Positions 28,560 to 54,682 of a DNA stretch of 64,000 nucleotides are shown here, one piece after another. The notes beneath the pieces were generated by a model that worked only from the letters and a program-made list of their open reading frames with translations, was not told where the DNA came from and did no database searches. A program made the position numbers and the translations under genes. Within the stretch, counting starts at the first letter, position 1, and every line of letters starts with the position of its first letter. The stretch is from a bacterium (GTDB lineage Bacteria > Chloroflexota > Dormibacteria > Dormibacterales > Dormibacteraceae): assembly GCA_004299235.1 (NCBI GenBank), contig SCQL01000009.1:124001-188000 (forward strand), written 5' to 3'.

Positions 28560-29204
28560 CTATTGTCCTGGAAGCCGGTGCAGTTGGAAAAGGACGATCA
28601 GCGCGCCCGCGGCCAGATAGGGCCCGTAGGCGATCGTCCCTCTCATCGAGCGGTGCCAGATGATGATCCCCACCGAGACCACCCCGGCGAGGACGACGCC
28701 GTAGAAAAGTGCCGTGATGGTCGGCAGCGGACCGAGCAGCAGGCCCATGAACAGGGCGAGCTTGACGTCACCGAACCCCAGCGCCTCCGCCTTGAAGATG
28801 GCCGCGCCCGCCAGCGCCAGGACCAGGAAGAGCAGGCCGGCGGCGAACCCTGTCGCGATACCCGCCCACCAGGGGTGGCCGAAGAGGCTGACCACCAGGG
28901 CCAGGCCCATCGACGGGAACAGCACGCGGTCGAGGATCAGCCGGTGCTCGTAGTCGAAGAAGATCACCTGGACCAGGACCAGGACGAAGATGCTGCGCAG
29001 CAGGAGCATCGGGAACGAGCTGAGCTCGAACGCGAACAAAGCGAACAGGAGCGCCGCAAGGATGGGCGGCCCGTAAACCTGCCAGCGCCTGGCGCCCGCC
29101 TCCAGCCCTTCCAGCCGCGCCAGTCGAACGGAGCCCCAGCGCACGAACCATCCGGCCCCGGCGCCGACGACGGCCCAGCCGATGACGATCGGGAGCGAGC
29201 TCAC
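28560..29204 (-). CDS. Prepilin peptidase (A24 aspartic protease family)
   Basis: A24 peptidases cleave the leader of type IV-like prepilins at the membrane. The 214-aa polytopic protein has the two expected aspartates, in FFDYEHRLILD (first Asp) and in the GxGD motif GFGDVKLALFMG. The N-terminal cysteine-bearing methylase region of PilD is not evident; only a degenerate segment (GAGAGWFVRWG) remains. It is the only prepilin peptidase in the window and may serve the Tad locus 15 kb away, although it is embedded among aro genes. Confidence 0.87.
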   Translation of the reverse strand: MSSLPIVIGWAVVGAGAGWFVRWGSVRLARLEGLEAGARRWQVYGPPILAALLFALFAFELSSFPMLLLRSIFVLVLVQVIFFDYEHRLILDRVLFPSMGLALVVSLFGHPWWAGIATGFAAGLLFLVLALAGAAIFKAEALGFGDVKLALFMGLLLGPLPTITALFYGVVLAGVVSVGIIIWHRSMRGTIAYGPYLAAGALIVLFQLHRLPGQ

Positions 29205-31276: not shown

Positions 31277-31682
31277 GTCGCCGGTCCAGGTGGGCCTGGA
31301 GCATCAGGGCGGCGGCCACCCGGTCGACGCTGAGCCGCCGCTGGGCGCGCCGCACGCCGCCCGCGATCAGCGAGCGCTCCGCGGCCACCGTCGTCAGGCG
31401 CTCGTCGACGAGCTCGACCGGAAGCTTCGAGGCCCTTCGAATCGCATCGGCGAGCTTTTTCGCCGCCGCCGCCTCCGGCCCAAGCGTTCCATCCATGCGC
31501 CGCGGCAGGCCGACCACGATCCGCCTTGCCTCGTGTGCCTTGCCGATCTCCGCCAGGCGCGCCGCAAGCGTCGCCGACGGCTCCGCCGGGACGGTCATGA
31601 GCGCCTGCGCGATGGTCGCCGTGGGATCGCTGAGCGCGAGCCCGACCCGCTTCGACCCCGGATCGACCGCGAGTATGCGCAC
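31266..31682 (-). CDS. ruvX: RuvX/YqgF pre-16S rRNA nuclease
   Basis: The YqgF family has an RNase H-like fold. It completes 5' processing of 16S rRNA, and some members resolve Holliday junctions. The 138-aa protein begins RILAVDPGSKRVGLALSD and contains VVGLPRRMDGTLGPEA and LVDERLTTVAAE, carrying the acidic catalytic residues. Its GTG shares a base with the upstream stop (TAGTG). Confidence 0.94.
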   Translation of the reverse strand: MRILAVDPGSKRVGLALSDPTATIAQALMTVPAEPSATLAARLAEIGKAHEARRIVVGLPRRMDGTLGPEAAAAKKLADAIRRASKLPVELVDERLTTVAAERSLIAGGVRRAQRRLSVDRVAAALMLQAHLDRRRDG

Positions 31683-33280
31683 TAGGGTGAGGGTGCGGGC
31701 GACGCGGCTGGTGAAGACGCACCGGACGCGGCCGCGGAACTCGATGGCGTGCCCTGCTGCACCACGTAGTGGAGTGAGATGCGTCCGACCAGCAGAGGCA
31801 TGAGCGGCAGGGCCATCGGCTGCTCTTTGATGGCGACCGACTTGATCGGCAGCCGCTCGAGGTAGAACTTCGCCTGGGCCAGCGGCCGGCCGACGATCTG
31901 CGATCGGATCTTGGCTTCGTCGAGCTTGGGGGCGACGTAGGCGGAGGCGCTGCCGACGAACGTGAGGTTGCCGCCGCTCGTCGCGTTGAGGATGCGGTAA
32001 TCCACCAGGATCGGGCTCTCGGTGAGCAGCTGCTGGTCGTTCGGCACCCGCTGCGCGAGGTAGTTCCGGAAAGCCTTCTGCACGTCGGCATCGACGTAGA
32101 AGTCGCCCTCGCCGGTGAGCGTCAGCGTGCCGCTGAACGTCGGCACCTTGTCGTTCGGCTGGTGGTCGGTGGTGAAGTTCGGCGGACCGTAGACGATCGT
32201 CTCGCTGAGCTTCTCCCCGGCCTGTCCCGCGCCGACGAGCTGTTGGGCGATGCTCTGGCGCAGCTCCTGCTCCAGCTGCGCCCGCGCCGAGTCGAAGTCG
32301 GCCTCGGTCATCTGGGGCGTGGACGACGCGTCCGTCCCTCCGCCGGTGGCCTGCGGGTTGGTGGCATGGACCTTGCTTGAGTCAAAGGGACCGCAACAAT
32401 CGAGGATTTGCGTGATCGTGTCGTGGCCGACATTGCCGGCCGATCCGGGAGTGACTGCCTGCACGTTGACCGTGGCCTGTCCGCCGTTCCATGGGACGGT
32501 GGTGTCCGGGGATGTTTGCGCGAATGTGATGCTGTCGGTGTTCATCAGCCGCTGGCCACGCTTGAAGACCAGACCAGGGGAATTCGTGAAGGCCGAACTC
32601 TTCAGGTCGTTCGTGTACACGACCTGGCCGGTGGCCGGCGCCAGCTGCACCTGGATCACGCCCGTGGTCTTGAAGCCCTGCGAGCTGGAGCGCGAGATGA
32701 CGTCCGTGCGCACGTGGATCGGCGCCTTGCCGGGCTGAGCCTGGATCTCGACATCTTTCTCCGTGAACGGCTGGGCCTGGGCCACCAGCGTCACCGAGGC
32801 GGAAGGGACGTAGACCGCCATGGCGAACAGCCCGACCACCAGCAGGGTCGCCGCCGTGACGTACAGGAGGAAGCGCCCCGGCTTGAGCTCGGTCGCGTTC
32901 TTGGTGATGAGCTTGGTCGGCGCGGCGACGCCGACGTGAGCGACGGGCGCGGCGCGGGCCCGCCGCCACCACCTCCGAACGGGAGGCGGGGCCTCGGGCT
33001 CCGACGGGATGCCCTCGCCCTGCGGCCCGACGGCGCCGAACACCGGGAAGCCGCTCTCGGCGGCCATCTTCTGGACCGCTGGGTCGTCGCACACGACGGT
33101 GACCCGCTTGCCCATGCGCGCCGAGTAGTTGCGCAGGAGCTGGAAGTTGAAGCGGCTCTGCCCGATGCGCGAGCGCATCGGCAGCACGAGCATCGCGTCC
33201 TCACCGCCGGAGCGGCGAAGCCGCTCGACGACCTCGGGGATCTCGTCCTCGCTTTCGACGTATATGGGGTTCGTTGCCAT
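31682..33280 (-). CDS. gp47/baseplate J-like single-pass membrane protein
   Basis: This resembles proteins annotated as baseplate J/gp47 family in Chloroflexota-type genomes. Of its 532 aa, residues 1-85 form a small cytoplasmic domain (IYVESEDEIPEVVERLRRSG). A Pro/Arg linker and one transmembrane helix (about 137-157) follow, then a long Thr/Ser/Gln-rich exterior part ending in an Ala/Ser/Pro tail. It is unlikely to be phage-derived, since no other phage gene is near. The neighbour upstream is an FtsA-like ATPase, so a PilM-PilN-like cytoplasm-to-envelope pair is one possibility (inference). Confidence 0.7.
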   Translation of the reverse strand: MATNPIYVESEDEIPEVVERLRRSGGEDAMLVLPMRSRIGQSRFNFQLLRNYSARMGKRVTVVCDDPAVQKMAAESGFPVFGAVGPQGEGIPSEPEAPPPVRRWWRRARAAPVAHVGVAAPTKLITKNATELKPGRFLLYVTAATLLVVGLFAMAVYVPSASVTLVAQAQPFTEKDVEIQAQPGKAPIHVRTDVISRSSSQGFKTTGVIQVQLAPATGQVVYTNDLKSSAFTNSPGLVFKRGQRLMNTDSITFAQTSPDTTVPWNGGQATVNVQAVTPGSAGNVGHDTITQILDCCGPFDSSKVHATNPQATGGGTDASSTPQMTEADFDSARAQLEQELRQSIAQQLVGAGQAGEKLSETIVYGPPNFTTDHQPNDKVPTFSGTLTLTGEGDFYVDADVQKAFRNYLAQRVPNDQQLLTESPILVDYRILNATSGGNLTFVGSASAYVAPKLDEAKIRSQIVGRPLAQAKFYLERLPIKSVAIKEQPMALPLMPLLVGRISLHYVVQQGTPSSSAAASGASSPAASPAPSP

Positions 33281-33308: not shown

Positions 33309-34568
33309 CTAGACCTTTATAGCGCCCAGGACCCGCCGCATGACGGTGTTGACGGTGTCGCGCTCCTCGGCTTCGGTCCGCAGAGCGTGGTTCGCCAGAC
33401 CCATCGGAGCGACGTCCTGGGGACTCGAGAGCTGGCCGGTGGAATCGGTCAGGTTGCGCACGTCCGGCGGCACCAGGTGCCGTATCCGAGGCTCTCGCGG
33501 GAACGGAAGGCCCGCCGCCCAGCTGTTCTTGACCATCTCGAGCGTGAGCTCGGGGAGGAGGCTGCCGCCGCCGCACAGATAGATGCTGGTCGGCAGCCGC
33601 TCGCCTCGCGACAGCTCCCTCACGCTGAGCGCCAGGCCCTGCAGCAGGACCTCCGCGTCAGCGCTCAGCAGCTCGGACACCTGGCGGTGCTGGTCGGCCG
33701 AAAGCAGACCCTCCGAGTGGCGGAGCTTGCGCGCCTCGGCCTCCTCGTAGCTGAGGCCGAACGCGAGCGCGAGGCGGCGGGTGAAGGCGCGACCGCCGAG
33801 GTTGAACATTCGGGTGCCCTCGACGCCCCCATCGCGTACCAGCGCCACGTCGGTGGTGCCGCCGCCGACGTCGACGAAGATCCCGCCCTCCGCCCACGTC
33901 TCCTCGCTGGCGCAGGCCCGCGCCAGCGCATAGGGCTGAGCGACGGCGGCCGCCAGCTCGAGGTCGAGCTCTCGCACGACGGTCTCGATGGCGTCGATGT
34001 GGGTCATCGGCGCAAACGTGTTGAAGACCGTGACCTCGAGGTTCTTGCCGGTGAAGCCCACCGGGTTGGTGACCGGGTAGCCGTCCACGCGCACGTTGGT
34101 GATCGCCGAGTGGACCAGCCGCGCCTCGAGCTGACCGTAGCTGCGCTCCATCTCCAGCAGGTGCTGGGCCTCGCGGAGCGCGCGGCGCTGCACCATCTGG
34201 AGCATGGTCGAGATCTCGCTGGAGCGAACGCGCGCCTTCGGGTTCTCTCGCGGGTAGGCGATCGTCGACGAGAAACCCTTGATCAGCTCGCCCGCGATGC
34301 CCACCACGACCTGGCCCGGGACCGTCTTGGCCATGTCCTCGGCCGCCTCGAGCGCGCGGTTGCAGGACTGGATCACCGATTCCAGGTCGGCGATGGCGCC
34401 GCCGGACATCGCCGCCGGCGCCTGCGGCTCGCGCCCGACGCCGAGCACCTCGCCGTCTGGACCGTCGCGCCGGACCACCAGCACCTTGATGAGATCGGTG
34501 CCGATGTCCAGGACGGTGAAGTGGCGGTAGTACTCGCTGCGCTTGCGCAGGAACTTGAACTTCGTCAA
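33309..34568 (-). CDS. FtsA/PilM-like actin-fold ATPase
   Basis: The 419-aa protein has the actin-like ATPase framework: phosphate 1 HFTVLDIGTDLIKVLVV, phosphate 2 GGIFVDVGGGTTDVALV and adenosine motif IYLCGGGSLLPEL. The region LVHSAITNVRVDGYPVTNPVG matches the FtsA-specific subdomain 1C. A C-terminal basic amphipathic stretch (VNTVMRRVLGAIKV) could target the membrane, as in FtsA. It could be a true FtsA or a paralogue serving the gp47-like protein. No ftsZ is in the window. The TTG start overlaps the alaS stop (TTGA). Confidence 0.8.
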   Translation of the reverse strand: MTKFKFLRKRSEYYRHFTVLDIGTDLIKVLVVRRDGPDGEVLGVGREPQAPAAMSGGAIADLESVIQSCNRALEAAEDMAKTVPGQVVVGIAGELIKGFSSTIAYPRENPKARVRSSEISTMLQMVQRRALREAQHLLEMERSYGQLEARLVHSAITNVRVDGYPVTNPVGFTGKNLEVTVFNTFAPMTHIDAIETVVRELDLELAAAVAQPYALARACASEETWAEGGIFVDVGGGTTDVALVRDGGVEGTRMFNLGGRAFTRRLALAFGLSYEEAEARKLRHSEGLLSADQHRQVSELLSADAEVLLQGLALSVRELSRGERLPTSIYLCGGGSLLPELTLEMVKNSWAAGLPFPREPRIRHLVPPDVRNLTDSTGQLSSPQDVAPMGLANHALRTEAEERDTVNTVMRRVLGAIKV

Positions 34569-43484: not shown

Positions 43485-43820
43485 GTGACCACCGGCATCG
43501 TCCAGCTCATCTCCCTGTCCCTTGCCGCGCTGGCGCTGGTCATGGGCGCCTACCTCCTCATCATCGGCAAGCGACCCTGGCGCGACGGCGAGAACGAGCG
43601 GGTGGCGCCGCGAGTCAGGCTCCTCGGCCTTAGCTACATCCTCGTCTTCGGCTCGGCGATGATCCAGATCATCACGCAGCCGCATGGTGATGAGGCGGTT
43701 GCGCTCGGCGGCCTCATGGTCCTGGGCGGCCTCATCGTGATCGTGGTCGTGTTCCTGGAGACGCGAGCGGCCCGACGCTCGGCGCAAGAGGGCCGAATCG
43801 ACAGCCGCCTCAGGGGCTAG
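43485..43820 (+). CDS. Small membrane protein, unknown function
   Basis: The 111-aa protein has three hydrophobic stretches (about residues 4-27, 47-62 and 72-92) and an Arg-rich C-terminus. I do not recognise a family. It starts at GTG 73 nt from the divergent hisS gene. Its last 11 bases overlap the 3' end of the convergent histidine kinase gene. Codon use and GC content match its neighbours, which supports its being real. Confidence 0.6.
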   Translation: MTTGIVQLISLSLAALALVMGAYLLIIGKRPWRDGENERVAPRVRLLGLSYILVFGSAMIQIITQPHGDEAVALGGLMVLGGLIVIVVVFLETRAARRSAQEGRIDSRLRG

Positions 43821-45432
43821 CGGGCCGCGTTCGGTACCCCGCCGCGGCCTTCAAGGCCTCCTGCAGGTCCTCCAGGTGCACGGGCTTGCTCATGTAGTCG
43901 TCGAAGCCCGCCTTCAGGCAGCGGTCCTGGTCACCGGGGCCGGCCATGGCGGTGAGCGCGATCAGACGCGGCCGGTTGCCGCGCGGCCAGCGACGGCAGA
44001 TCGCCTCCGCCGCTGTCAGCCCGTCCATCTCCGGCATCAGGACGTCCATCAAGAGGGCGTCGTATGGCTGCTGCGCCACCGCCGCCACGGCCTCGCGGCC
44101 GTTGGCGACCACATCCACGTTGTGCCCGAGCTTGGCGACCAGGCGCCGGAGCAGGTTTTGATTCAGCGCGCTGTCATCCGCGATGAGGACCCGCAACGCG
44201 TCAGGGACCAGCTCTGACTCCGGCGCCGGCCGGGGCGCCTCGTGCGCGCCGAGCCGGACGATCACGTCGTGAAGCGTCCTCGGCGCGACCGGCTTGGTGA
44301 GCGTCGCCTGGAGCACGTCGCTGTCGGCGGCGGCCGCCTCTTCGGCCCCCGGAGTCGCGACCGCGATCAGCACGATCGGCAGCTGATCCGTCCGCCGGAG
44401 CGCTCGCAGCGAAGCCGAGACCGCCAATCCGTCGATCGCCGGCCGCCTGTGCTCGACCAGCGCGATGTCGAAGGGATAGCCGGCCTTGACCACATCGAGC
44501 GCCTCTTCAGATGTCGAAGAGGTCGCCGACGCCCCCCACTGCTCGGCCTGGAGGGCGAGCACGCGCCGCTCGGTCGGGTCGGCCACGACCACCAGCACCC
44601 GCATCCCCTCGAGCGTCAGCTGGCCCGTGCCGACGGAAGCTGGCAAAACCTCGGCCAGGATCGTGAACTCGAATGCCGTCCCGGCGTCGGGGCCGGCTTC
44701 GACACCGCCCTGCTCGACCCGCAGGTCGCCGTCCATCATCTCGACGAGCTGCTTGCAGGTGGCCAGGCTCAATACCGCCAGCCGATCTCCAGGCTCGAGG
44801 CGGTCGCGCGGAGCGCTCGACCCGTCCAGCCCGCCGCGCAGGATCCGTGCGGGCACGCCGCGGCCCGTGTCGCGAATCTTGAAACGCAGCGCGACGAGAC
44901 CGCCTCTGTCCTCGGAGCTGAGCTCGATCCCCACGCCGCCGCGGTATGTGCGTTCGACGGCGCCATGCAGCAGGGCGAGGACGATCTGCTCGAGGCGGCG
45001 AGAATCGCCGACGACCACGCTGGGCACGTCGGGCTCGGCGCGGAACGACAGGTCGAGACCCTTGGCGCCGGCGGCATCACCGATCAGCCCGAGGCAGGTC
45101 TCCACACTGGCTCTGACGTCGAATGGATGCAGGGCGAGCTCGAACGCTCCGCTCTGAAGCGTGGCGGCGTCGAGCACGTCATCCACCAGCCTCGCCACCT
45201 GCTCCGCGCCGGTCTGGACGATCGACGCCAGCTCGCGCTCCTCGCCTGAGGTGGCGCCGGTCGCCAGCAGACCGGCGGCGCCGACCACGGCGTTGAGCTG
45301 GTTGCGCACCTGGTGGCCGAAATCGGCCAGCACCTCGGCGTCGACAATGGCCGGCCGGGTGGCTCCCCTGGCAGGGGCGGCGACGGCCGGCGGGCCGGTC
45401 TTCTTCTTCCCCACGTCCTCGAGTTCGCCCAT
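43810..45432 (-). CDS. Hybrid sensor histidine kinase with degenerate kinase boxes and two receivers
   Basis: This 540-aa soluble protein has a HisKA-like region with His40 (FGHQVRNQLNAVVG), a HATPase-like region (about 105-260) and two receiver domains (about 278-395 and 413-530). The residue after the His is Gln rather than Glu or Asp. The N-box reads LEQIVLALLHGAV with no Asn. Receiver 1 has Glu327 at the phospho-acceptor position (LVEHRRP), while receiver 2 is intact (LMDVLMPEMDG, Asp463, Lys516). It lies 2 nt after cpaF, so it is co-expressed with the Tad motor ATPase. A phosphorelay scaffold is more likely than a strong kinase (inference). Confidence 0.85.
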   Translation of the reverse strand: MGELEDVGKKKTGPPAVAAPARGATRPAIVDAEVLADFGHQVRNQLNAVVGAAGLLATGATSGEERELASIVQTGAEQVARLVDDVLDAATLQSGAFELALHPFDVRASVETCLGLIGDAAGAKGLDLSFRAEPDVPSVVVGDSRRLEQIVLALLHGAVERTYRGGVGIELSSEDRGGLVALRFKIRDTGRGVPARILRGGLDGSSAPRDRLEPGDRLAVLSLATCKQLVEMMDGDLRVEQGGVEAGPDAGTAFEFTILAEVLPASVGTGQLTLEGMRVLVVVADPTERRVLALQAEQWGASATSSTSEEALDVVKAGYPFDIALVEHRRPAIDGLAVSASLRALRRTDQLPIVLIAVATPGAEEAAAADSDVLQATLTKPVAPRTLHDVIVRLGAHEAPRPAPESELVPDALRVLIADDSALNQNLLRRLVAKLGHNVDVVANGREAVAAVAQQPYDALLMDVLMPEMDGLTAAEAICRRWPRGNRPRLIALTAMAGPGDQDRCLKAGFDDYMSKPVHLEDLQEALKAAAGYRTRPASP

Positions 45433-45434
45433 GC

Positions 45435-46924
<1,490 letters not shown>

Positions 46925-46928
<4 letters not shown>

Positions 46929-47818
46929 GACCGCTGTCTGCGCGCCACACGCTGGAGACGGCGCTGCGCCCTGGCCGCCGCCGCCTTGACCGCAACATCG
47001 GGCTCGCCGGTCGCCAGCTTGCCGAGCCCATCCGCGACGCTGCCATCGCCGATCATCCCCAACGCGAGGCACGCGGCGAGGCGCACCCGCTTCGGCCACC
47101 GGCGATCGTGTGCGATGCCCAGCAGCGGGGGCACCCGCAGAGAGTCGCGGCGAAGCCCGCATGCCAGCACGGTCGCCACCGCCGCTCGCTCGCTTTTCGG
47201 CTGGCGTATCAAAGTCTCGATTTCGATGTCGGACGCGGCCTGTGACAGGGAGATGGCCAACCGGTACATGGGCACCCGATCGACCGCAGCCATCATCGTG
47301 TCCACCGCACGCCGGCCGCCGAGCCGGCCGAGGGCGCGGATCGCCGCTTCTCGCACTTGGATGTTGGGATCCCCGAGCAGGTCGCCGATCCACAGGACCG
47401 CCTCGCTCAACCGGATGGCCCCGCAAAGCTGCGCCGCCGACGCCCTGGCCGCCGGGTCGGGGCTGACCAGCGAGTCGACCAGCTCACGGCCCAGCCCTGA
47501 GCGTCTGAAGACCTCGGTCACGCGCCACTGCGCGGTGAGCCCTGCGCCTGCGCGATCGAGCGTCGCCGTGACCGCGGCCGCCACCGCCCCCGGATCCTGG
47601 AAGAGCTCGTCCGCACTGACGCTCACCATGACCTCGGGCTCCCGTGCGAGGGCTGCGTCCAGCACCCGGTCGATGCGTGCCGCCAGGTCCGAGCGTGGAG
47701 CGCCCGCCCGGGCCGCCCCCAACCTCCTGGTTGGGCGCCCTGCATCTGTCTCGGCTGCGGCCCTTGTGTTCAAACCATTACTGCGATGCGGAGTCGATCT
47801 GGGGAGACGTTGGTACAT
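46925..47818 (-). CDS. HEAT-repeat-like protein coupled to CpaF
   Basis: The product of about 297 aa is built of HEAT-like helical repeats, for example AASAAQLCGAIRLSEAVLWI, VREAAIRALGRLGGRRAVDTM and VRLAACLALGMIGDGSVADG. Such proteins are scaffolds, and no catalytic motif is seen. The start is uncertain; the ATG at 47818 is the most upstream one that stays clear of the divergent cpaE gene. The first 50 or so residues are not repeat-like and may be untranslated. Tight coupling to cpaF suggests it binds or regulates the Tad motor. Confidence 0.7.
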
Positions 47819-47885
47819 TATCGGGGTTTGTGCGCCTGTGAGGTCCCCGAAAACCGATCGGGCGCGGGAGGAAGAACCACGGCCA

Positions 47886-49124
47886 ATGGCTGCTAGCGGC
47901 GGCCCCGGCGTTGACCAGTCTCCCGCCGCGCTGCAGCTGCGGATGCGGATCCTGGAGATGTCGTCTGTCTTCGCCGACCTGACGGACGGAGCCCTGCGAG
48001 CCGTCGCCCGCCGGATGCGTCCGGTCGGCCTCAAGGGCCGGGACACGCTCCGGCTCGGCGCTCAGGGGAGTGACGCCGTGGTGTTCCTGGCGTCCGGGCA
48101 GGTCGAGCAGTCCATGGCCGACGGCTCCGGAAAGGTCCTGCTGACCCGGCGCCCGGCCCCGGGCGAACTCGTCGTCCTCCCCGCCCGCCGCACCCGCGAC
48201 CGCTACGTGACCAGCCTCTACGGCATGACCGACGCCGTCCTGCTGACGCTCGACCGAGACGGCCTTCTCGAAGGCCTGGGACCCGACGTCGAGAGGGTCG
48301 CCCTGGCCCTCGACAAGCTCTGGGAGCAGGAGCTCTCGGCGGCGGCGGCGGCCGAGGCGCAGCCGGCATCGGTGGCAGGAGCCCCGATCGTGGCCTTCTT
48401 CTCCGCCAAAGGCGGCTCGGGCGTGACCACGCTGGCCATCAACACGGCGGCGGCGCTGGCCCGCAAGTTCCCGCGCCAGGTCCTGCTCATCGATCTATCG
48501 GCGCCCTTCGGGCACGCCGCCCTGTTCGCCGACCTGATCGCCACCGGCTCGATCGCGAGCGCGTCCAAGGCCGCCCACGGCGATTTCGATCGCGTGCTGC
48601 GCGGTGACATCCTGAATCACAAATCCGGGATGGGCGTCCTGCCAGGAACCCTGCGCCCCGAGGAGGTGGACCTGTTGACCGGCGAGCTGACGGGCCGCGT
48701 GCTCGATGCCGTCGTCAGCCGGCAGCGGATCATCGTCGTCGACCTCGGGACGTCGCTGGCTGAAGCGGCCCTGGCCGTGCTCGAACGCGCCGAGTGCCTG
48801 GTCGTGGTGGTGCCGCCCGAGATCGCCGCGATGACCGACGCCCGTCGCGCCCTCGCCGTGTTCCGCGACATCATGAACGTGCCCGACCAGCGGATCGAGC
48901 TGGTGCTCAACCAGAGGGTGCCTCACGCGCCTCTCGACCGGGCGGCGATCGAGTCGATCCTGGGCCGCAAGATGTCCGTGACCGTCGGGTTCGACAATTC
49001 GAGGCCCGAGGATGCAACCATCGCCGGCGACCTGGTGGTGCAGCGAGACCCGTCGTCGTTCGTCTCACGCGGCGCGACGGACTTGTCCCGCGTCATCATG
49101 GCGAGCCTCAAGCTCGATGCCTAG
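47886..49124 (+). CDS. cpaE: CpaE/TadZ-type ATPase with N-terminal cNMP-binding-like domain
   Basis: TadZ/CpaE proteins are MinD-like ATPases that place the Tad machinery. Residues about 145-412 are this module, with the deviant P-loop FFSAKGGSGVTTLAINTA, where the second Lys is Val as in many TadZ, then LLIDLSAPFGHAALFADL and IIVVDLGTS. Residues about 20-130 look like a cyclic-nucleotide-binding beta-roll (SSVFADLTDGALRAVARRM, VVFLASGQVEQSMADGSG, PGELVVLPARRTRDRYV). The usual N-terminal domain is an atypical receiver. The ATG at 47886 is used; an in-frame GTG at 47838 is an alternative. Confidence 0.87.
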   Translation: MAASGGPGVDQSPAALQLRMRILEMSSVFADLTDGALRAVARRMRPVGLKGRDTLRLGAQGSDAVVFLASGQVEQSMADGSGKVLLTRRPAPGELVVLPARRTRDRYVTSLYGMTDAVLLTLDRDGLLEGLGPDVERVALALDKLWEQELSAAAAAEAQPASVAGAPIVAFFSAKGGSGVTTLAINTAAALARKFPRQVLLIDLSAPFGHAALFADLIATGSIASASKAAHGDFDRVLRGDILNHKSGMGVLPGTLRPEEVDLLTGELTGRVLDAVVSRQRIIVVDLGTSLAEAALAVLERAECLVVVVPPEIAAMTDARRALAVFRDIMNVPDQRIELVLNQRVPHAPLDRAAIESILGRKMSVTVGFDNSRPEDATIAGDLVVQRDPSSFVSRGATDLSRVIMASLKLDA

Positions 49125-49635
49125 ACGGCCCGGCGGCGGCCCTCGGGCGCGCGCCGGGCGCAGGCGCGGTCAAGCACTCGTCGAGCTGGCGATCTCGCTG
49201 CCGATCCTGGTCCTCCTGGTCGCGGGCGTGCTCGAGCTCGGACGTGGATATGCCTTCGCGGTCGCGACCTCCGACGCCGCCCGCGACGGTGCCCGGTACG
49301 TGGCCGGCAAGACCGTCAGCACCAACGGCCCGGGCCTGGCCGCCATGTGCGGCGTGGTCCAGGCCGACCTCGCCGGAGTCACCTCGTCGCTCAGCTGTCC
49401 GACGCAGGTCAGCCACGCTCCGCCCTTTGTGAGCGGTACCGACTACGCCAAGCCGGCCGCCGGCCAGGCGGTCGTCGCCGTGTTCTGCGGCGCGAGCGTG
49501 GACTGCGCCGGCTCTCAGAGCCCGCTATATCAGTCCGAGGTCGACGTCTACGTCTACTACGGGTTCGACGACCTCAACCTGCTCGGCGGCGCGATCACCA
49601 TCTCGGGCTCGAGCCGGGCGACAACCTCGTGGTGA
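49117..49635 (+). CDS. tadE: TadE-like minor pseudopilin 1
   Basis: TadE proteins are minor pseudopilins processed by the Tad prepilin peptidase. The 172-aa product has a basic N-terminus, the hallmark GQALVELAISLPILVLLVAG helix (about residues 18-37) and ELGRGYAFAVATSDAARDGARY, typical of TadE. The exported domain has four cysteines. The ATG overlaps the cpaE stop by 8 nt, and the next gene is coupled by GTGA. Confidence 0.88.
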   Translation: MPRRPGGGPRARAGRRRGQALVELAISLPILVLLVAGVLELGRGYAFAVATSDAARDGARYVAGKTVSTNGPGLAAMCGVVQADLAGVTSSLSCPTQVSHAPPFVSGTDYAKPAAGQAVVAVFCGASVDCAGSQSPLYQSEVDVYVYYGFDDLNLLGGAITISGSSRATTSW

Positions 49636-50255
49636 GGCGCCCGGGGCGTTCGACAGCCCAGGCACTGGTCGAGTTCGCGCTGGTGGCCCCCGCCGTCCTC
49701 CTGATCATCGGGGCCACCGTCGACATGGGCCGCGGCCTCCTGCTCTACGCGCTTCTCGCCGGCGCCTCGCGGGACACCGCCCGCCAGGCCGCCCTCGTGG
49801 ACTACAGCGGATCGAACACGCTGCCGCCTGCCTGCACGACGCTGGCCGCCCCGTGCGCGATGAGCTCGGTCGTGACCGGAGCTCATCTGCTGGACCCATT
49901 GGGAGTCTCGGTCGTCTACCAGGACTCGACGGCGATCTCCTCCCCACCCGGCTACGGGACCTACGCCGCCAACGCCGACCCGACCCAGCCGGGCACCATC
50001 ACCCTGACCGGCGCCACGAATCCAAACACGGTTTACGTGTTCGTCTACGAGCTGGATGCCACCGGCGGCAACCCCAGCCCGCGATGGAGCTGTCCCTCGT
50101 GTGCCGCCGGTAGCGGCGCCGCCGTCCGCACGTCAGGACATCAGCGGGTCGTCGTCGACCTGAAGCTGAGCTGGCAACCGGTCCTGGCTCGGTTCCTGGG
50201 CATCCCGGCCGCCATCACCTTCGACTCGCAAACCGTGGATCGAATCGAGTTCTAG
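49632..50255 (+). CDS. TadE-like minor pseudopilin 2
   Basis: The 207-aa protein has the TadE/TadG-like signature AQALVEFALVAPAVLLIIGA (about residues 9-28), followed by DMGRGLLLYALLAGASRDTARQ. A longer extracytoplasmic domain with four cysteines follows. It starts at GTG overlapping the first tadE stop (GTGA). Two successive TadE-type genes suggest a heteromeric minor-pilin complex, as with TadE/TadF. Confidence 0.85.
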   Translation: MRRPGRSTAQALVEFALVAPAVLLIIGATVDMGRGLLLYALLAGASRDTARQAALVDYSGSNTLPPACTTLAAPCAMSSVVTGAHLLDPLGVSVVYQDSTAISSPPGYGTYAANADPTQPGTITLTGATNPNTVYVFVYELDATGGNPSPRWSCPSCAAGSGAAVRTSGHQRVVVDLKLSWQPVLARFLGIPAAITFDSQTVDRIEF

Positions 50256-50261
50256 CCCCTG

Positions 50262-51965
50262 ATGCCCGCCCGAACCAGATCGCAGACCGGCCAGGTGATG
50301 GTGCTCGTGGCGGTGGCGCTGCTCGCGCTGATCGGGTCGGCGGCGCTGGTCCTGCTCGCGGGGTCGGCCGAGTGGCAGAAGAACCAGCTGCAGCAGCTGG
50401 CCGACCAGTCGGCGCTCGACTCGGCGTTGAAGATCGGCACCGGCTGCGACGCCGCCAGGGCGAACGCCGTCATCACCGAAGCCGACAGCTTCCTGGCCGC
50501 GCAGCGCACGAGGACTGGCAGCCTGGCCATCACAGCCGGCACCTGCGCCGTGCCATACCAGGGGACGGATTCGTTCGCCGGCGGCCTGAGCGCCACCATC
50601 AACTATCCCTACCGGGCGCACCAGCAGCAGGTCGAGGTCATCCTGACTCTGAAGCTCCCCATCTCCTTCGGCGGTGAGGTGGGTGCGACCAGCACGTCGG
50701 TGGTCCGGAGGGCGGTCGCCCAGCAGCTGGCGGGCTCGGTGCCGGCGGTGACCGCCACCAGCCTCGCTTGTACAGGCGGCCAGGTGAACATCAGCGGCAG
50801 CGTGGCGACCCGAAACGCCATCGCCCGCGGCGGGGCCTGCGCCCTGTACGCGCATGCCCGCTTCGACGCGCCGTCCGGGACCTACTCGGATCTCGGCAAC
50901 GTCCGGGTGTTCGCCGACGGGCAGACGTGGGTCGGCGGCGGCGGCGGCTGCACCGCCGGAGCCAATGCCGGCTCGAGCAGCGCCATCTGCGCGGACGGCT
51001 TCGAGCTGTCCGGCCATGTCGCTCCCGCCTGCGGCACCGGCGGCACGAGCGAATACCTGTCCGCCGCGGACGCGCTCATCAATCCCAACCCGTGCGCGGC
51101 CGGCGTGGCGCCTCAGCCGGTGGCCCCGCCCTCATCCACACTCCCGCCGGAGCCCAACACCGACGCGAGTGCGGTCGCCACGCTCAAGGGCACCGGGGGC
51201 GCCGCGTGCTCGCCCGGCGCCGTGTACCCGAAGGTCAAGATCAAAGGCAAGAACGTCTACTCCGGCCTCGCACCGCCACCCACCCAGGACGGCAACAGTG
51301 TCTGGCACTTCGTGCCCAGCTGCTACGGCTACATCGACGTCGGCCTGGTGAAGCCCGATGGGGCAGTCCTCGACCCCGGCTTCTACTACTTCAACGGCTC
51401 GAATTCCGGAGGCGGTGGAGGAATCTGCGTCAACGGGGGGGCCCTGTATGCCCGTGACGTGACGCTCGAGTTCGTCAACCAGGCGGGCTTCTCCTCGGGG
51501 GACTGCACCGTCGGCGGCGGCGGCGGCTGCGCCGCCCCGTGCCAGGTCGGCTCCGCGCCCTGCTCCCTACGCCCATGCCCGCCCAACACGCCCGCCGACG
51601 CGCCCAACAACCTCACGTGGTTCGCCGCCCCCTGCGCTGGAGCGCCGAGCGCGCTGGATGCAGCCAGCTGCCCGGTGTCGGCCTGGTGCCCTGTGGGCGA
51701 CCGCTCCTGCTGGAACCTGCTGGTGTGGGCTCCGGCCGGCACCACCGGGCAGTTCACGCTCAAGGGCGCCGCCGTCAACGCGTGGCTGCTCGGGTCGGTC
51801 TACTGGCCCGGCACGTGCACCGACGATGTGAACGGCACGAGCACGATCGCCGGCGCGATTTCCTGCACCAGTCTTTCGATCTCCGCCGGGGCGGGCGCCG
51901 CCACCGCCATCGGCGGCGACTACGGGATCAACACGGCTTCAGCCGAGGCAATCTTGATCGAGTGA
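50262..51965 (+). CDS. tadG: TadG-like protein with large cysteine-rich extracellular domain
   Basis: Residues about 8-50 carry the TadG-type N-terminus (TGQVMVLVAVALLALIGSAA, then LQQLADQSALDSALK). The remaining 500-odd residues of this 567-aa protein are exported, rich in Gly, Ser and Pro, and contain 22 cysteines, many next to Gly runs (GGGGGCTAG, GGGGGCAAPC). No von Willebrand A domain, usual in TadG, is recognisable. Disulfide-stabilised adhesin or pilus-tip roles are possible (inference). It lies 6 nt after the second tadE gene. Confidence 0.8.
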   Translation: MPARTRSQTGQVMVLVAVALLALIGSAALVLLAGSAEWQKNQLQQLADQSALDSALKIGTGCDAARANAVITEADSFLAAQRTRTGSLAITAGTCAVPYQGTDSFAGGLSATINYPYRAHQQQVEVILTLKLPISFGGEVGATSTSVVRRAVAQQLAGSVPAVTATSLACTGGQVNISGSVATRNAIARGGACALYAHARFDAPSGTYSDLGNVRVFADGQTWVGGGGGCTAGANAGSSSAICADGFELSGHVAPACGTGGTSEYLSAADALINPNPCAAGVAPQPVAPPSSTLPPEPNTDASAVATLKGTGGAACSPGAVYPKVKIKGKNVYSGLAPPPTQDGNSVWHFVPSCYGYIDVGLVKPDGAVLDPGFYYFNGSNSGGGGGICVNGGALYARDVTLEFVNQAGFSSGDCTVGGGGGCAAPCQVGSAPCSLRPCPPNTPADAPNNLTWFAAPCAGAPSALDAASCPVSAWCPVGDRSCWNLLVWAPAGTTGQFTLKGAAVNAWLLGSVYWPGTCTDDVNGTSTIAGAISCTSLSISAGAGAATAIGGDYGINTASAEAILIE

Positions 51966-52010
51966 AGTTGCGTCATTCGGCGCATCATGCGAGGCTTGGT
52001 GGCCAACTAG

Positions 52011-52805
52011 ATGTCCATAGGCAACTCTGAGGTCAGCCGGCCGCGGCGCGGACGGCTCTACATCGTCGTTGGCTCGATCCTCGCCGTGCTCGCCTTCGCG
52101 ACCGCCGCCGGGCTCGCCAGCCTGCCGCTCCTGGCCCCGACCACAGGCGGCGCCAAGGTGGTGGTGGCCAAGAACACCATCACCGCCCGAACCAAGATCC
52201 AGGCCTCCGACCTGGAGCTCAGCACCGTCAACCCGGTCCCGCCCCAGGCGTTTTTCGACCTCAGCGCCGTGGCCGCCAAGGGAGCCCGCGTCGACATACC
52301 GGCCGGCTCCCCCGTCACCGCCAACCTCATCGCCGCCGCGGGCGACCTGCTGAGCAGCAGCGACGTGACGTACCTCCCGATCCCGTCGGGCTACGTCGCC
52401 GTCACCGTGCCGACCGGCGAGCAGGTCGGCGTCGGCGGATATGTGCAGGCCGGCGATCGGATCACGATGCTGGCCACCATCAACACCTCCGTGTTCGGAG
52501 TGAGCCCAGGCGTTCCGGTGGTGCGGACCGTGTTCCGCAACCTCGACGTGCTGCGCGTCGGCCCGGCGACGGGATCCTCCGGAACGGCGCAGGTCACCAG
52601 CAGCTTGACTCTGCTCACGACCGGCTGCGACTCCGAGTACCTCTTCTGGCTCTTGAACAACGCGACGCTGAAATACGAGCTGGAATCGTTCTCCGACTAC
52701 GCCGCGACACCGAGCCAGCCTGATCCGGCCTGCCCGAAGCTGTCGTCGGCGGACGGGGTCGGGCCACATGACGTGGACACTCGCTGGCATTTCACCGGCC
52801 GCTGA
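52011..52805 (+). CDS. cpaB: CpaB/RcpC-like pilus assembly protein with SAF domain
   Basis: The 264-aa protein has an N-terminal transmembrane segment (about residues 17-42) and a SAF/RcpC region with VVVAKNTITARTKIQASDLE, RVDIPAGSPVTANLIA and VGVGGYVQAGDRITMLATI. This is the pattern of CpaB/RcpC. In diderms CpaB works with the CpaC secretin. No secretin gene is seen here, which fits a monoderm envelope. It lies 45 nt after tadG and 3 nt before tadB. Confidence 0.88.
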   Translation: MSIGNSEVSRPRRGRLYIVVGSILAVLAFATAAGLASLPLLAPTTGGAKVVVAKNTITARTKIQASDLELSTVNPVPPQAFFDLSAVAAKGARVDIPAGSPVTANLIAAAGDLLSSSDVTYLPIPSGYVAVTVPTGEQVGVGGYVQAGDRITMLATINTSVFGVSPGVPVVRTVFRNLDVLRVGPATGSSGTAQVTSSLTLLTTGCDSEYLFWLLNNATLKYELESFSDYAATPSQPDPACPKLSSADGVGPHDVDTRWHFTGR

Positions 52806-52808
52806 TCC

Positions 52809-53759
52809 ATGCCGGTCATCGTCCTGCTGGTCGCCGCCGCCGCCGCTTTCGGGGTCGGCCTTGTGGTGTACGGCATCGTCACCCGCAATCGCGTGGTGGC
52901 GGCATCGGCCGGCGGGCCCACGGCCAGGGTCACGAATCGGAGCCTGGCTGACGTAAGGGAGCAGCTGCGGCGGCGTTTCGAGCCAGGCGCCGCACCGGCC
53001 TGGATGGCCGCCATGCAGAACCCCAGCGCCCTCGCAGCCGACCTGGCCAGCGCGGACCTTCAACTCCGTCCCTACGAGTTCCGCTTCGTGCAGGCCGGCT
53101 CGGCGGTCGCCCTGGCGCTGATCGCGCTGCTGCGATTCGGCGTCAGCATCCCCATCCTCGTCTTCGCCGCGATCGGGTATGTGCTTCCGGCTTTTTACCT
53201 GCGCAACCGGCGCGGCCATCGCCTGCGCCAGTTCGACGCGGGCCTGCCGCGTGCCATGGATTTGATGGCGAACTCGATGAAGGCCGGCCAGTCGGTCGTG
53301 CAATCGCTGCGTGCCGTGACCGAAAATGCCGGCCCGCCCCTGGCCGACGAATTCGGGCTCGCTCGTCGGGAGATCGAGCTCGGAGCCTCAATCGAAAGCG
53401 CGCTCAGCAACATGGTGCGGCGCATCGGCAGCGCGGACCTGCGGCTGGTGGTCATGGTGATCACCATCCAGCACACGGTGGGGGGCGACCTACCCGCCAT
53501 CCTCGCCACCCTGGCCGACACGATGCGGCAGCGTGCCGAAATGCGGGCGGAGGTCCTCGCGGCGACCGCGCAGTCGCGCGCGTCGAGCCTGATCATCACG
53601 CTGCTCCCGGTGGTCGCCGGCGCATTCCTGTACCTGGTCGTGCCCGGCTACTTCCGGCCCATGTTCCTCAACCCGCTCGGCTGGGCGATGCTGCTCCTTG
53701 CGGCGGGGTTGCTGGTCGTCGGCAACCTGATCATCCGCCGTATCACCGCGATCGCATGA
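52809..53759 (+). CDS. tadB: Tad pilus inner-membrane platform protein TadB
   Basis: TadB is one of two GspF-like platform proteins for Flp pilus assembly. The 316-aa protein has an N-terminal transmembrane helix, a pair in the middle (VALALIALLRFGVSIPILVF) and two at the C-terminus. The conserved T2SSF domain shows FDAGLPRAMDLMANSMKAGQ and RIGSADLRLVVMVITIQHTVGGDLP. Its ATG follows cpaB by 3 nt, and tadC overlaps its stop (ATGA). Confidence 0.93.
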   Translation: MPVIVLLVAAAAAFGVGLVVYGIVTRNRVVAASAGGPTARVTNRSLADVREQLRRRFEPGAAPAWMAAMQNPSALAADLASADLQLRPYEFRFVQAGSAVALALIALLRFGVSIPILVFAAIGYVLPAFYLRNRRGHRLRQFDAGLPRAMDLMANSMKAGQSVVQSLRAVTENAGPPLADEFGLARREIELGASIESALSNMVRRIGSADLRLVVMVITIQHTVGGDLPAILATLADTMRQRAEMRAEVLAATAQSRASSLIITLLPVVAGAFLYLVVPGYFRPMFLNPLGWAMLLLAAGLLVVGNLIIRRITAIA

Positions 53760-54682
53760 ACACCCTGCCGATCATCGTCGGCGTCGTCGCCGCGGCCGGG
53801 GCCTGGCTGCTGGCCGCCGGCATCATGGCCGCACGCACCGGCGACGCGGCCACCCTCGCCCGCCAGCGGCTGGCGCGCCAGGAGATCGCCCTCGGCCAGA
53901 ACGCGATCGCCCTCGAGCTCGAGAAACCGCTGGGCGAGCGCCTCACGGCGCCGTTCCGCCGCTGGCTGGCGCGCCAGATGAACCGCCTCACCCCCGCCAC
54001 GCAGGCGGCCAACTTCCAGAGGCAGCTCGACTTCGTCGGCGCGCCGCTGGGCCTCGACCCGGCGGGCGTCCAGACGCTGCGGATCGCCGCGGCGGCCGCG
54101 TTGGGGGCGCTCGGGACGGCGATCGGTGTGCTCATCGGCCAGCCGTTTGCCATCGGCCTGGCCCTCCTGATCGGGGTGGCGGTCGGTTTCTACCTGCCCG
54201 TCATCTGGTTGGACCAGCTGGTGCGCGACCGGCGCACCGAACTGGAGGTGGCGCTGCCCAACGCCCTGGACGTGGTCGCGATCAGCATGAGCGCCGGCCT
54301 CGGCCTGGACCGCGCGCTGGAGCAGCTGGTCCGGCACCAGGAAGGACCGCTCACCCTGCTCGTGGCACGCGCCCTGCGCGAGATGGAGCTCGGCCGGCCG
54401 CGCGCCGAGGCGTTGTCGGACATGGCGGAGGCCACCGGGGTCGACGACTTCGCCTCGCTCGTGCGCGGGATCCTGCACGCCGAGCGGACGGGCGTCCCCA
54501 TCGCCCATACGATCGCCGCGCACTCGGCTCAGATGCGAGTCAAGCGGCGCCTCAAGATCCGCACCGAAGCCGCCCGCGCCTCGCTGAAGATCCTCGTCCC
54601 GACCGTCGGGTGCGTCTTCCCGACGCTCTGGCTGATCCTGCTGGGCCCGGCGCTGATCGTCGTCTTCAGCATCGGCCATTAG
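53756..54682 (+). CDS. tadC: Tad pilus inner-membrane platform protein TadC
   Basis: This is the second GspF-like platform protein, 308 aa. It shows membrane segments at about residues 5-25, 108-150 and 280-305. The T2SSF domain contains ALPNALDVVAISMSAGLGLD, GRPRAEALSDMAEATGVDDF and HSAQMRVKRRLKIRTEAARA. It is the last gene of the plus-strand Tad arm. Downstream (54683-54912) there is no gene, only a palindromic repeat. Confidence 0.93.
   Translation: MNTLPIIVGVVAAAGAWLLAAGIMAARTGDAATLARQRLARQEIALGQNAIALELEKPLGERLTAPFRRWLARQMNRLTPATQAANFQRQLDFVGAPLGLDPAGVQTLRIAAAAALGALGTAIGVLIGQPFAIGLALLIGVAVGFYLPVIWLDQLVRDRRTELEVALPNALDVVAISMSAGLGLDRALEQLVRHQEGPLTLLVARALREMELGRPRAEALSDMAEATGVDDFASLVRGILHAERTGVPIAHTIAAHSAQMRVKRRLKIRTEAARASLKILVPTVGCVFPTLWLILLGPALIVVFSIGH

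What the first reader, a model, noticed from the sequence alone, without database searches (positions are those of the whole stretch)
43810..54682. Two-armed Tad locus with dedicated regulators but no Flp pilin or secretin
Minus arm: HEAT-like protein, cpaF, hybrid pseudo-kinase. Plus arm: CNB-cpaE, two tadE, a large tadG, cpaB, tadB, tadC. No small Flp pilin gene fits in the gaps and no secretin is present. The machine may assemble an unusual pseudopilus led by the TadE/TadG proteins, or use a pilin encoded elsewhere. HEAT-CpaF coupling and the nearby Rel and HD-GYP genes point to layered control. This is my best candidate for an undescribed system in the window.
Basis: partly seen in the sequence, partly recalled or inferred. 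Interest (0 to 1): 0.65.

Follow-up and report, generated by a model that had tools for sequence, protein, structure and literature searches.

The report
Inherited Tad pilus machine lacking pilin
A block of eleven genes in an uncultured soil bacterium encodes a complete pilus-building machine with its own unusual control proteins but not the thread subunit, which this bacterial group usually encodes somewhere else in the genome.

Summary
It encodes a pseudo-hybrid kinase, CpaF and a HEAT protein on the minus arm. The plus arm encodes CpaE with a degenerate CNB-like domain, TadE1, TadE2, TadG, CpaB, TadB and TadC. No Flp fits in it. The host is a soil Candidatus Dormibacterota genome.

The block, with one small membrane protein, sits as a unit between hisS and an MBL-Rel pair and maps to a single branch of the family tree. 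In 26 named loci HEAT-CpaF adjacency is never broken and no pilin is present. Sister genera have MBL and hisS adjacent, so Rel and HD-GYP are old neighbours, not part of the system.

The missing secretin is expected: the genome has none. The missing Flp is not exotic. The genome has Flp genes elsewhere, including orphans. Chloroflexota genomes with TadE always had Flp (28/28, against 1/19 without TadE). In 14 of 20 no Flp was found within 20 kb of an assembly ATPase.

Best reading: an ordinary type IVc (Tad) machine plus tip complex, using Flp supplied in trans. The conserved HEAT protein and pseudo-kinase appear to be an undescribed CpaF-control add-on. A TadE/TadG-only filament is not excluded.

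The parts
43485..43820 (+). small membrane protein (111 aa), no known family; travels with the block
   Evidence: present in 23 of 23 named loci whose contig reaches it; no homologue at the hisS-MBL junction of the block-lacking genomes tested
43810..45432 (-). pseudo-hybrid histidine kinase: HisKA, degenerate HATPase, receiver 1 with Glu for Asp, intact receiver 2
   Evidence: Pfam; residues conserved in 12 of 12 orthologues
45435..46928 (-). CpaF/TadA assembly ATPase, Walker A and catalytic motifs intact
   Evidence: Pfam T2SSE 3e-64, TIGR03819 5e-98, motifs
46925..47818 (-). HEAT-repeat protein, overlaps the cpaF start; own start codon uncertain
   Evidence: HEAT_2 1e-19; AlphaFold helical solenoid pLDDT 93; adjacent to cpaF in 26 of 26 loci
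47819..47885 (.). divergent regulatory gap between the two arms, with a conserved block TTGxTACAxTATCGG at its edge
   Evidence: alignment of ten loci; promoter function inferred
47886..49124 (+). CpaE/TadZ-type ATPase with an N-terminal degenerate CNB-like domain
   Evidence: AAA_31, MinD-type and Ssd hits; alignment with paralogues carrying clear CNB domains
49117..49635 (+). TadE1 minor pilin, prepilin motif G|QALVE
   Evidence: Pfam TadE 1.6e-10; motif conserved
49629..50255 (+). TadE2 (TadF-like) minor pilin, prepilin motif A|QALVE
   Evidence: Pfam TadE 1.1e-9; motif conserved
50262..51965 (+). TadG, large cysteine-rich minor-pilin/tip protein; lacks a domain of about 190-210 aa present in aligned relatives
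   Evidence: PF13400 weak, above cut-off in relatives; alignment
52011..52805 (+). CpaB/RcpC with SAF domain
   Evidence: RcpC 1e-9, SAF 7e-7
52809..53759 (+). TadB platform protein
   Evidence: T2SSF 3e-18
53756..54682 (+). TadC platform protein
   Evidence: T2SSF 3e-16
28560..29204 (-). prepilin peptidase (A24/TadV-like), the only PF01478 match in the genome, both Asp motifs present; 15 kb outside the block

Best explanation
The locus encodes a complete monoderm-type Tad (type IVc pilus) assembly machine: CpaF motor, TadB/TadC platform, CpaB, and CpaE. It also carries a TadE1-TadE2-TadG minor-pilin set that should form the priming tip and display TadG outside the cell. The filament subunit is a small Flp pilin encoded elsewhere in the genome and shared or supplied in trans. 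All prepilins are probably cut by the single A24 peptidase at 28.6 kb. The HEAT protein is a cytoplasmic binding scaffold for CpaF. The pseudo-kinase, with one working receiver, is a phosphorylation-driven scaffold or switch that reports to CpaF rather than an active kinase. Shown by sequence: gene identities, conservation as one block, one gain (or loss) on the family tree, Flp genes elsewhere, TadE-Flp co-occurrence. Inferred: tip assembly, Flp sharing, HEAT-CpaF contact, kinase inactivity, any function such as adhesion or surface contact.
For: Machine parts and order. One inherited unit: 26 named Dormibacterota loci with the same two-arm order, MBL-hisS adjacent without the block in sister genera, one change on a hisS+aspS tree at 99/100 support. 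Flp elsewhere: a Flp-CpaB-CpaF-TadB-TadC operon with no TadE/G, plus orphan Flp genes. All 42 family genomes have Flp. Flp in trans is common in the phylum: TadE and Flp co-occur 28/28 against 1/19. In 14 of 20 genomes no Flp was found within 20 kb of a T2SSE ATPase, and in three single-contig genomes the distance is 440-780 kb. One peptidase serves the genome. Precedents: the Myxococcus Kil pilin KilP lies outside the kil clusters and TadE/F/G homologues form tips (PMC12075869); in B. breve the peptidase is in another locus (PMC6916266). HEAT-CpaF link seen in two locus types with different CpaF lineages. HEAT model is a generic binding solenoid.
Against: No Flp gene is specifically tied to this block. 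The ppk-linked orphan Flp is found in most block-bearing genomes tested and none of those lacking the block, but both arose in the same clade, so this is one event. The Flp operon has its own motor and could use all the Flp. Genome-level co-occurrence does not show that this particular machine uses Flp. Block-lacking genomes also keep several Flp genes. The HEAT paralogue is absent from one type-B locus.
Confidence: 0.58

Rival explanations
1. The block builds a Flp-independent short pseudopilus made only of TadE1/TadE2 with TadG at the tip, used for display or secretion rather than as a long pilus.
For: No Flp in any of the 26 named loci or in 11 other relatives. A complete private motor and platform would be wasteful if it only supplied tips. 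TadE-only tad operons were proposed to use TadE as the subunit (PMC3244431). Two more Flp-less TadE-bearing machines exist in the same genome.
Against: No TadE-bearing genome among 28 good-quality Chloroflexota genomes lacked Flp. Flp far from the motor is common there. TadG and TadE resemble tip proteins that need Flp in Kil (PMC12075869).
Confidence: 0.25
2. A contact-dependent or predation device like the Myxococcus Kil system, with TadG as an exchangeable recognition tip.
For: Same minor-pilin triplet logic, and a TadG domain present in aligned relatives but absent in the window, as expected for a variable tip.
Against: No needleless T3SS or effector genes were looked for or seen in the block. 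TadG gave no informative fold match (model pLDDT 47, no PDB match with E<=0.001). Adhesion or DNA uptake are equally compatible.
Confidence: 0.12
3. A decaying or non-functional relic.
For: Window TadG is shorter than its relatives; the kinase and CNB-like domains are degenerate.
Against: All frames open, CpaF motifs intact, degenerate residues themselves conserved in 12 of 12 orthologues, block kept whole across at least seven genera.
Confidence: 0.03

Closest known systems
Tad / type IVc pilus system of monoderm bacteria (Bifidobacterium breve, Micrococcus luteus; Chloroflexales rcpC-tadZABC, tadEEG, flp)
   Same: CpaF, TadB, TadC, CpaB, CpaE, a TadE-TadE-TadG set, no secretin, peptidase in another locus
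   Different: no flp in the locus; HEAT protein and pseudo-hybrid kinase added; CNB-like domain on CpaE; divergent two-arm layout
Flp-less, TadE-bearing tad operons of Gram-positive bacteria (Imam et al. 2011, PMC3244431)
   Same: Tad machine with TadE-type pseudopilins and no flp gene in the operon
   Different: here a fixed 11-gene block with dedicated regulators, and flp genes elsewhere in the same genome
Myxococcus Kil system (PMC12075869)
   Same: major Flp pilin encoded away from the machine; TadE/F/G homologues KilL/M/N form tips
   Different: diderm with secretin; tips in four clusters sharing one machine; linked to a T3SS-like complex; no HEAT or pseudo-kinase noted
alphaRep / HEAT-repeat binding solenoids
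   Same: predicted fold of the HEAT protein
   Different: fold only; no partner or function transferred

Membership tests
Tad / type IVc pilus system | CpaF/TadA-type ATPase | tested here: met
   T2SSE 3e-64, TIGR03819 5e-98; motifs intact
Tad / type IVc pilus system | two paralogous platform proteins TadB and TadC | tested here: met
   two T2SSF proteins
Tad / type IVc pilus system | CpaB/RcpC and CpaE/TadZ | tested here: met
Tad / type IVc pilus system | TadE/TadF/TadG minor pilins with prepilin motif | tested here: met
   TadG lacks Glu at +5
Tad / type IVc pilus system | Flp major pilin in the same locus | tested here: not met
   none in the window contig or in 26 named loci; Flp genes present elsewhere in the genome
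Tad / type IVc pilus system | Flp is the subunit assembled by this machine | not testable with these tools
   needs genetics; co-occurrence only
Tad / type IVc pilus system | secretin (required in diderms only) | tested here: not met
   no secretin in the genome; expected for a monoderm
Tad / type IVc pilus system | prepilin peptidase | tested here: met
   single A24 peptidase at 28560-29204
Flp-less TadE tad operon class (PMC3244431) | tad biosynthetic genes with TadE and no flp in the operon | tested here: met
Kil system | machine genes plus a Flp encoded elsewhere plus L/M/N tips | tested here: inconclusive
   architecture alike; Flp use not shown
Kil system | association with a needleless T3SS and prey killing | not tested
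   not searched
active hybrid histidine kinase | intact N and G boxes | tested here: not met
   N-box Asn absent in 12 of 12, G2 degraded

The most novel reading that the evidence does not exclude
A dedicated, vertically inherited control unit for a Tad motor, in which a HEAT scaffold and a catalytically dead hybrid kinase gate CpaF, driving a Flp-independent TadE/TadG pseudopilus.
Probability: 0.2. Interest if true: 0.62.

Novelty: new variant of a known kind. Interest (0 to 1): 0.4.

Why it matters
It gives a clean, testable case of a Tad machine that keeps its tip proteins but not its pilin, in a phylum where the pilin seems usually to be encoded in trans. How pilins and machines are matched when they are unlinked is an open question for Tad pili. 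The HEAT-CpaF pairing, seen in two locus types, points to an unrecognised way of controlling the CpaF motor. One full-text search for 'HEAT repeat' with CpaF found a single paper, whose abstract concerns an acidobacterial genome rather than Tad motor control; that library lacks most subscription papers.

Tried and rejected
Rel and HD-GYP as part of the system: rejected by the block-free junction.

Hidden small pilin in the gaps: none.

A Flp family that tracks this block specifically: the ppk-linked Flp is limited to the same clade, so it is confounded. The xdhB-eda tandem Flp is older, because it is also present in G167, which lacks the block.

G313, G314 and G316 were at first taken as lacking the block; the hisS search showed they have it.

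TadG fold: AlphaFold model poor (pLDDT 47). Only the inserted domain is partly confident, and the PDB search gave nothing with E<=0.001.

HEAT-CpaF outside this family: not seen in 301 phylum genomes or in the other Dormibacterota families checked. The genome-wide pattern scan returned only records titled Dormibacterota or Chloroflexi, but it reaches only close relatives.

PDB search for HEAT gives only generic solenoids.

Searches for Dormibacterota with Flp/Tad or with pili found nothing on Tad loci in that phylum.

Full report
Observation. Pfam and NCBIfam support every call: T2SSE and TadA-type ATPase for CpaF, HEAT_2 for the HEAT protein, HisKA/HATPase_c/two receivers for the kinase, MinD/Ssd-like for CpaE, TadE for two proteins, PF13400 for TadG, RcpC and SAF for CpaB, and T2SSF twice. 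The genes overlap or lie close together within each arm, and the two arms diverge from a short gap (about 70 bp if HEAT starts at 47818). The sequence there carries a block conserved across ten genomes. No Flp gene fits, and none is on this contig. No secretin exists in the genome.

Host. A pattern scan of 84,980 species genomes with the HEAT alignment returned 26 loci. All come from MAGs titled Candidatus Dormibacteraeota/Dormiibacterota or, under an older name, Chloroflexi; several titles name palsa or a soil depth.

The block is one unit. In all 26 loci HEAT lies next to CpaF and CpaE diverges from HEAT. The kinase follows CpaF in all 24 whose contig reaches it, and the small membrane protein 43485-43820 in all 23 (the gene caller missed TadB in one locus). 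Eleven relatives examined earlier, some of them the same genomes, show the same. Protein identity to the window is about 50-80%. In seven family genomes without the block, hisS was located. In four of these MBL and hisS are 65-112 bp apart with no Tad genes between; in two the gap is larger (458 and 1813 bp) but holds no Tad gene; the seventh has hisS with no block beside it. On a hisS+aspS tree the block maps to one side of a single branch with 99/100 support, so it was gained (or lost) once and afterwards kept whole. Rel, MBL and HD-GYP are therefore older neighbours and not part of it.

Conserved oddities. The kinase has lost the N-box Asn and most of the G2 box, and receiver 1 has Glu instead of Asp, in 12 of 12 orthologues, while His40 and the second receiver stay intact. 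A conserved pattern of loss argues for a pseudo-kinase with a scaffold or switch role, not decay; lack of activity itself is inferred. The HEAT protein is predicted as an all-helical solenoid with mean pLDDT 93, closest to alphaRep-type binding scaffolds. A second locus type in the same family (RDD-CpaB-CpaE-HEAT-CpaF-TadB-TadC-TadE-TadE-TadG-CpaF2) again has a HEAT paralogue directly before CpaF, although one such locus lacks it. CpaF of the two locus types belongs to different branches; the second type groups with the Flp-operon CpaF, at moderate support (92/86). So HEAT accompanies two CpaF lineages. The CpaE N-terminus is homologous to CNB domains that are clear in paralogues, but in the window it is degenerate.

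TadG. Relatives carry an extra domain of about 190-210 residues between SCYGY and GAVLDPGFYYFN, which the window protein lacks cleanly and in frame. About twenty cysteines are invariant, which fits an extracellular protein. The AlphaFold model is poor overall (pLDDT 47), with a partly confident all-beta inserted domain, and PDB fold search found nothing significant.

Where is the pilin? The genome has a separate Flp-CpaB-CpaF-TadB-TadC operon without TadE or TadG, an orphan Flp beside ppk, and a tandem pair between xdhB and eda (neighbour names are by sequence appearance). Two further Tad loci have TadE proteins but no Flp. All 42 genomes of the family have Flp. Among 47 good-quality genomes elsewhere in the phylum, Flp (E<=1e-3) was found in 28 of 28 with TadE and 1 of 19 without (Fisher p 4e-12). 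The genomes are not independent (28 genomes in 21 genera), and the list was chosen by hand for assembly quality from genomes seen. For 20 of the 28, comparing positions shows 14 where no Flp was found within 20 kb of a T2SSE ATPase. Three of these are single-contig genomes with distances of 440-780 kb; for several drafts the genes lie on different contigs, so the true distance is unknown. TadE/TadG loci with CpaF in two of the single-contig genomes contain no Flp nearby. So Flp encoded in trans is a common arrangement in this phylum, and I favour it here. The alternative, that TadE1/TadE2 form the filament, was proposed in 2011 for similar operons and is not excluded.

Maturation. Only one A24 peptidase was found in the genome; it is in this window, 15 kb away, with both aspartate motifs. 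A shared peptidase outside the locus is known from B. breve (PMC6916266).

Comparison with the literature. Flp-less TadE tad operons (PMC3244431), tadEEG sets in Chloroflexales (PMC7332563), and a major pilin encoded away from the machine with TadE/F/G tips in Myxococcus (PMC12075869) are all described. The papers found by searching for CpaF with HEAT repeats, CpaE with CNB domains, or pili in Dormibacterota did not, by title and abstract, describe the HEAT-CpaF pairing or the pseudo-kinase; these were not all followed into the full text, and the library lacks most subscription papers.

Verdict. A genuine, conserved Tad machine; a new variant of a known kind. The conserved HEAT protein and pseudo-kinase are the part worth following.

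Noticed in passing
L017:7599-12338 (own genome C31): One 1579-aa ORF joins a CpaF-type ATPase (220-495), a class III nucleotide cyclase domain (871-1030) and an AAA_16 domain, beside TadG-TadE-TadE and CpaB-TadB-TadC. In a genome with CNB-bearing CpaE proteins this hints at cyclic-nucleotide signalling around Tad motors.
   Followed up: partly
L020:8359-8691 (own genome C24): 110-aa protein with WxxDGxxW-type repeats, a membrane helix and the C-terminal half of an Flp pilin but no prepilin motif.
   Followed up: no
L062-L068; L258; L259: Second Tad locus type RDD-CpaB-CpaE-HEAT-CpaF-TadB-TadC-TadE-TadE-TadG-CpaF2, without Flp; the HEAT gene is missing in L258.
   Followed up: partly
L129:12738-14015 and L130:8295-9557 (own genome C28): Two solo CNB-CpaE genes with no CpaF nearby, one in a neighbourhood conserved in relatives.
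   Followed up: partly
single-contig Chloroflexota genomes G208, G118, G166 (L269-L272, L276-L278): Flp genes lie 440-780 kb from any T2SSE ATPase although TadE loci are present.
   Followed up: yes
window 31682-33280: 532-aa protein with a moderate Baseplate_J match (6e-8) next to a PilM/FtsA-like protein at 33309-34568.
   Followed up: no
G063 and G103 (L134, L138): Each has a single Flp gene next to regulator-like genes and no CpaE hit; whether any Tad machine exists there was not checked.
   Followed up: no
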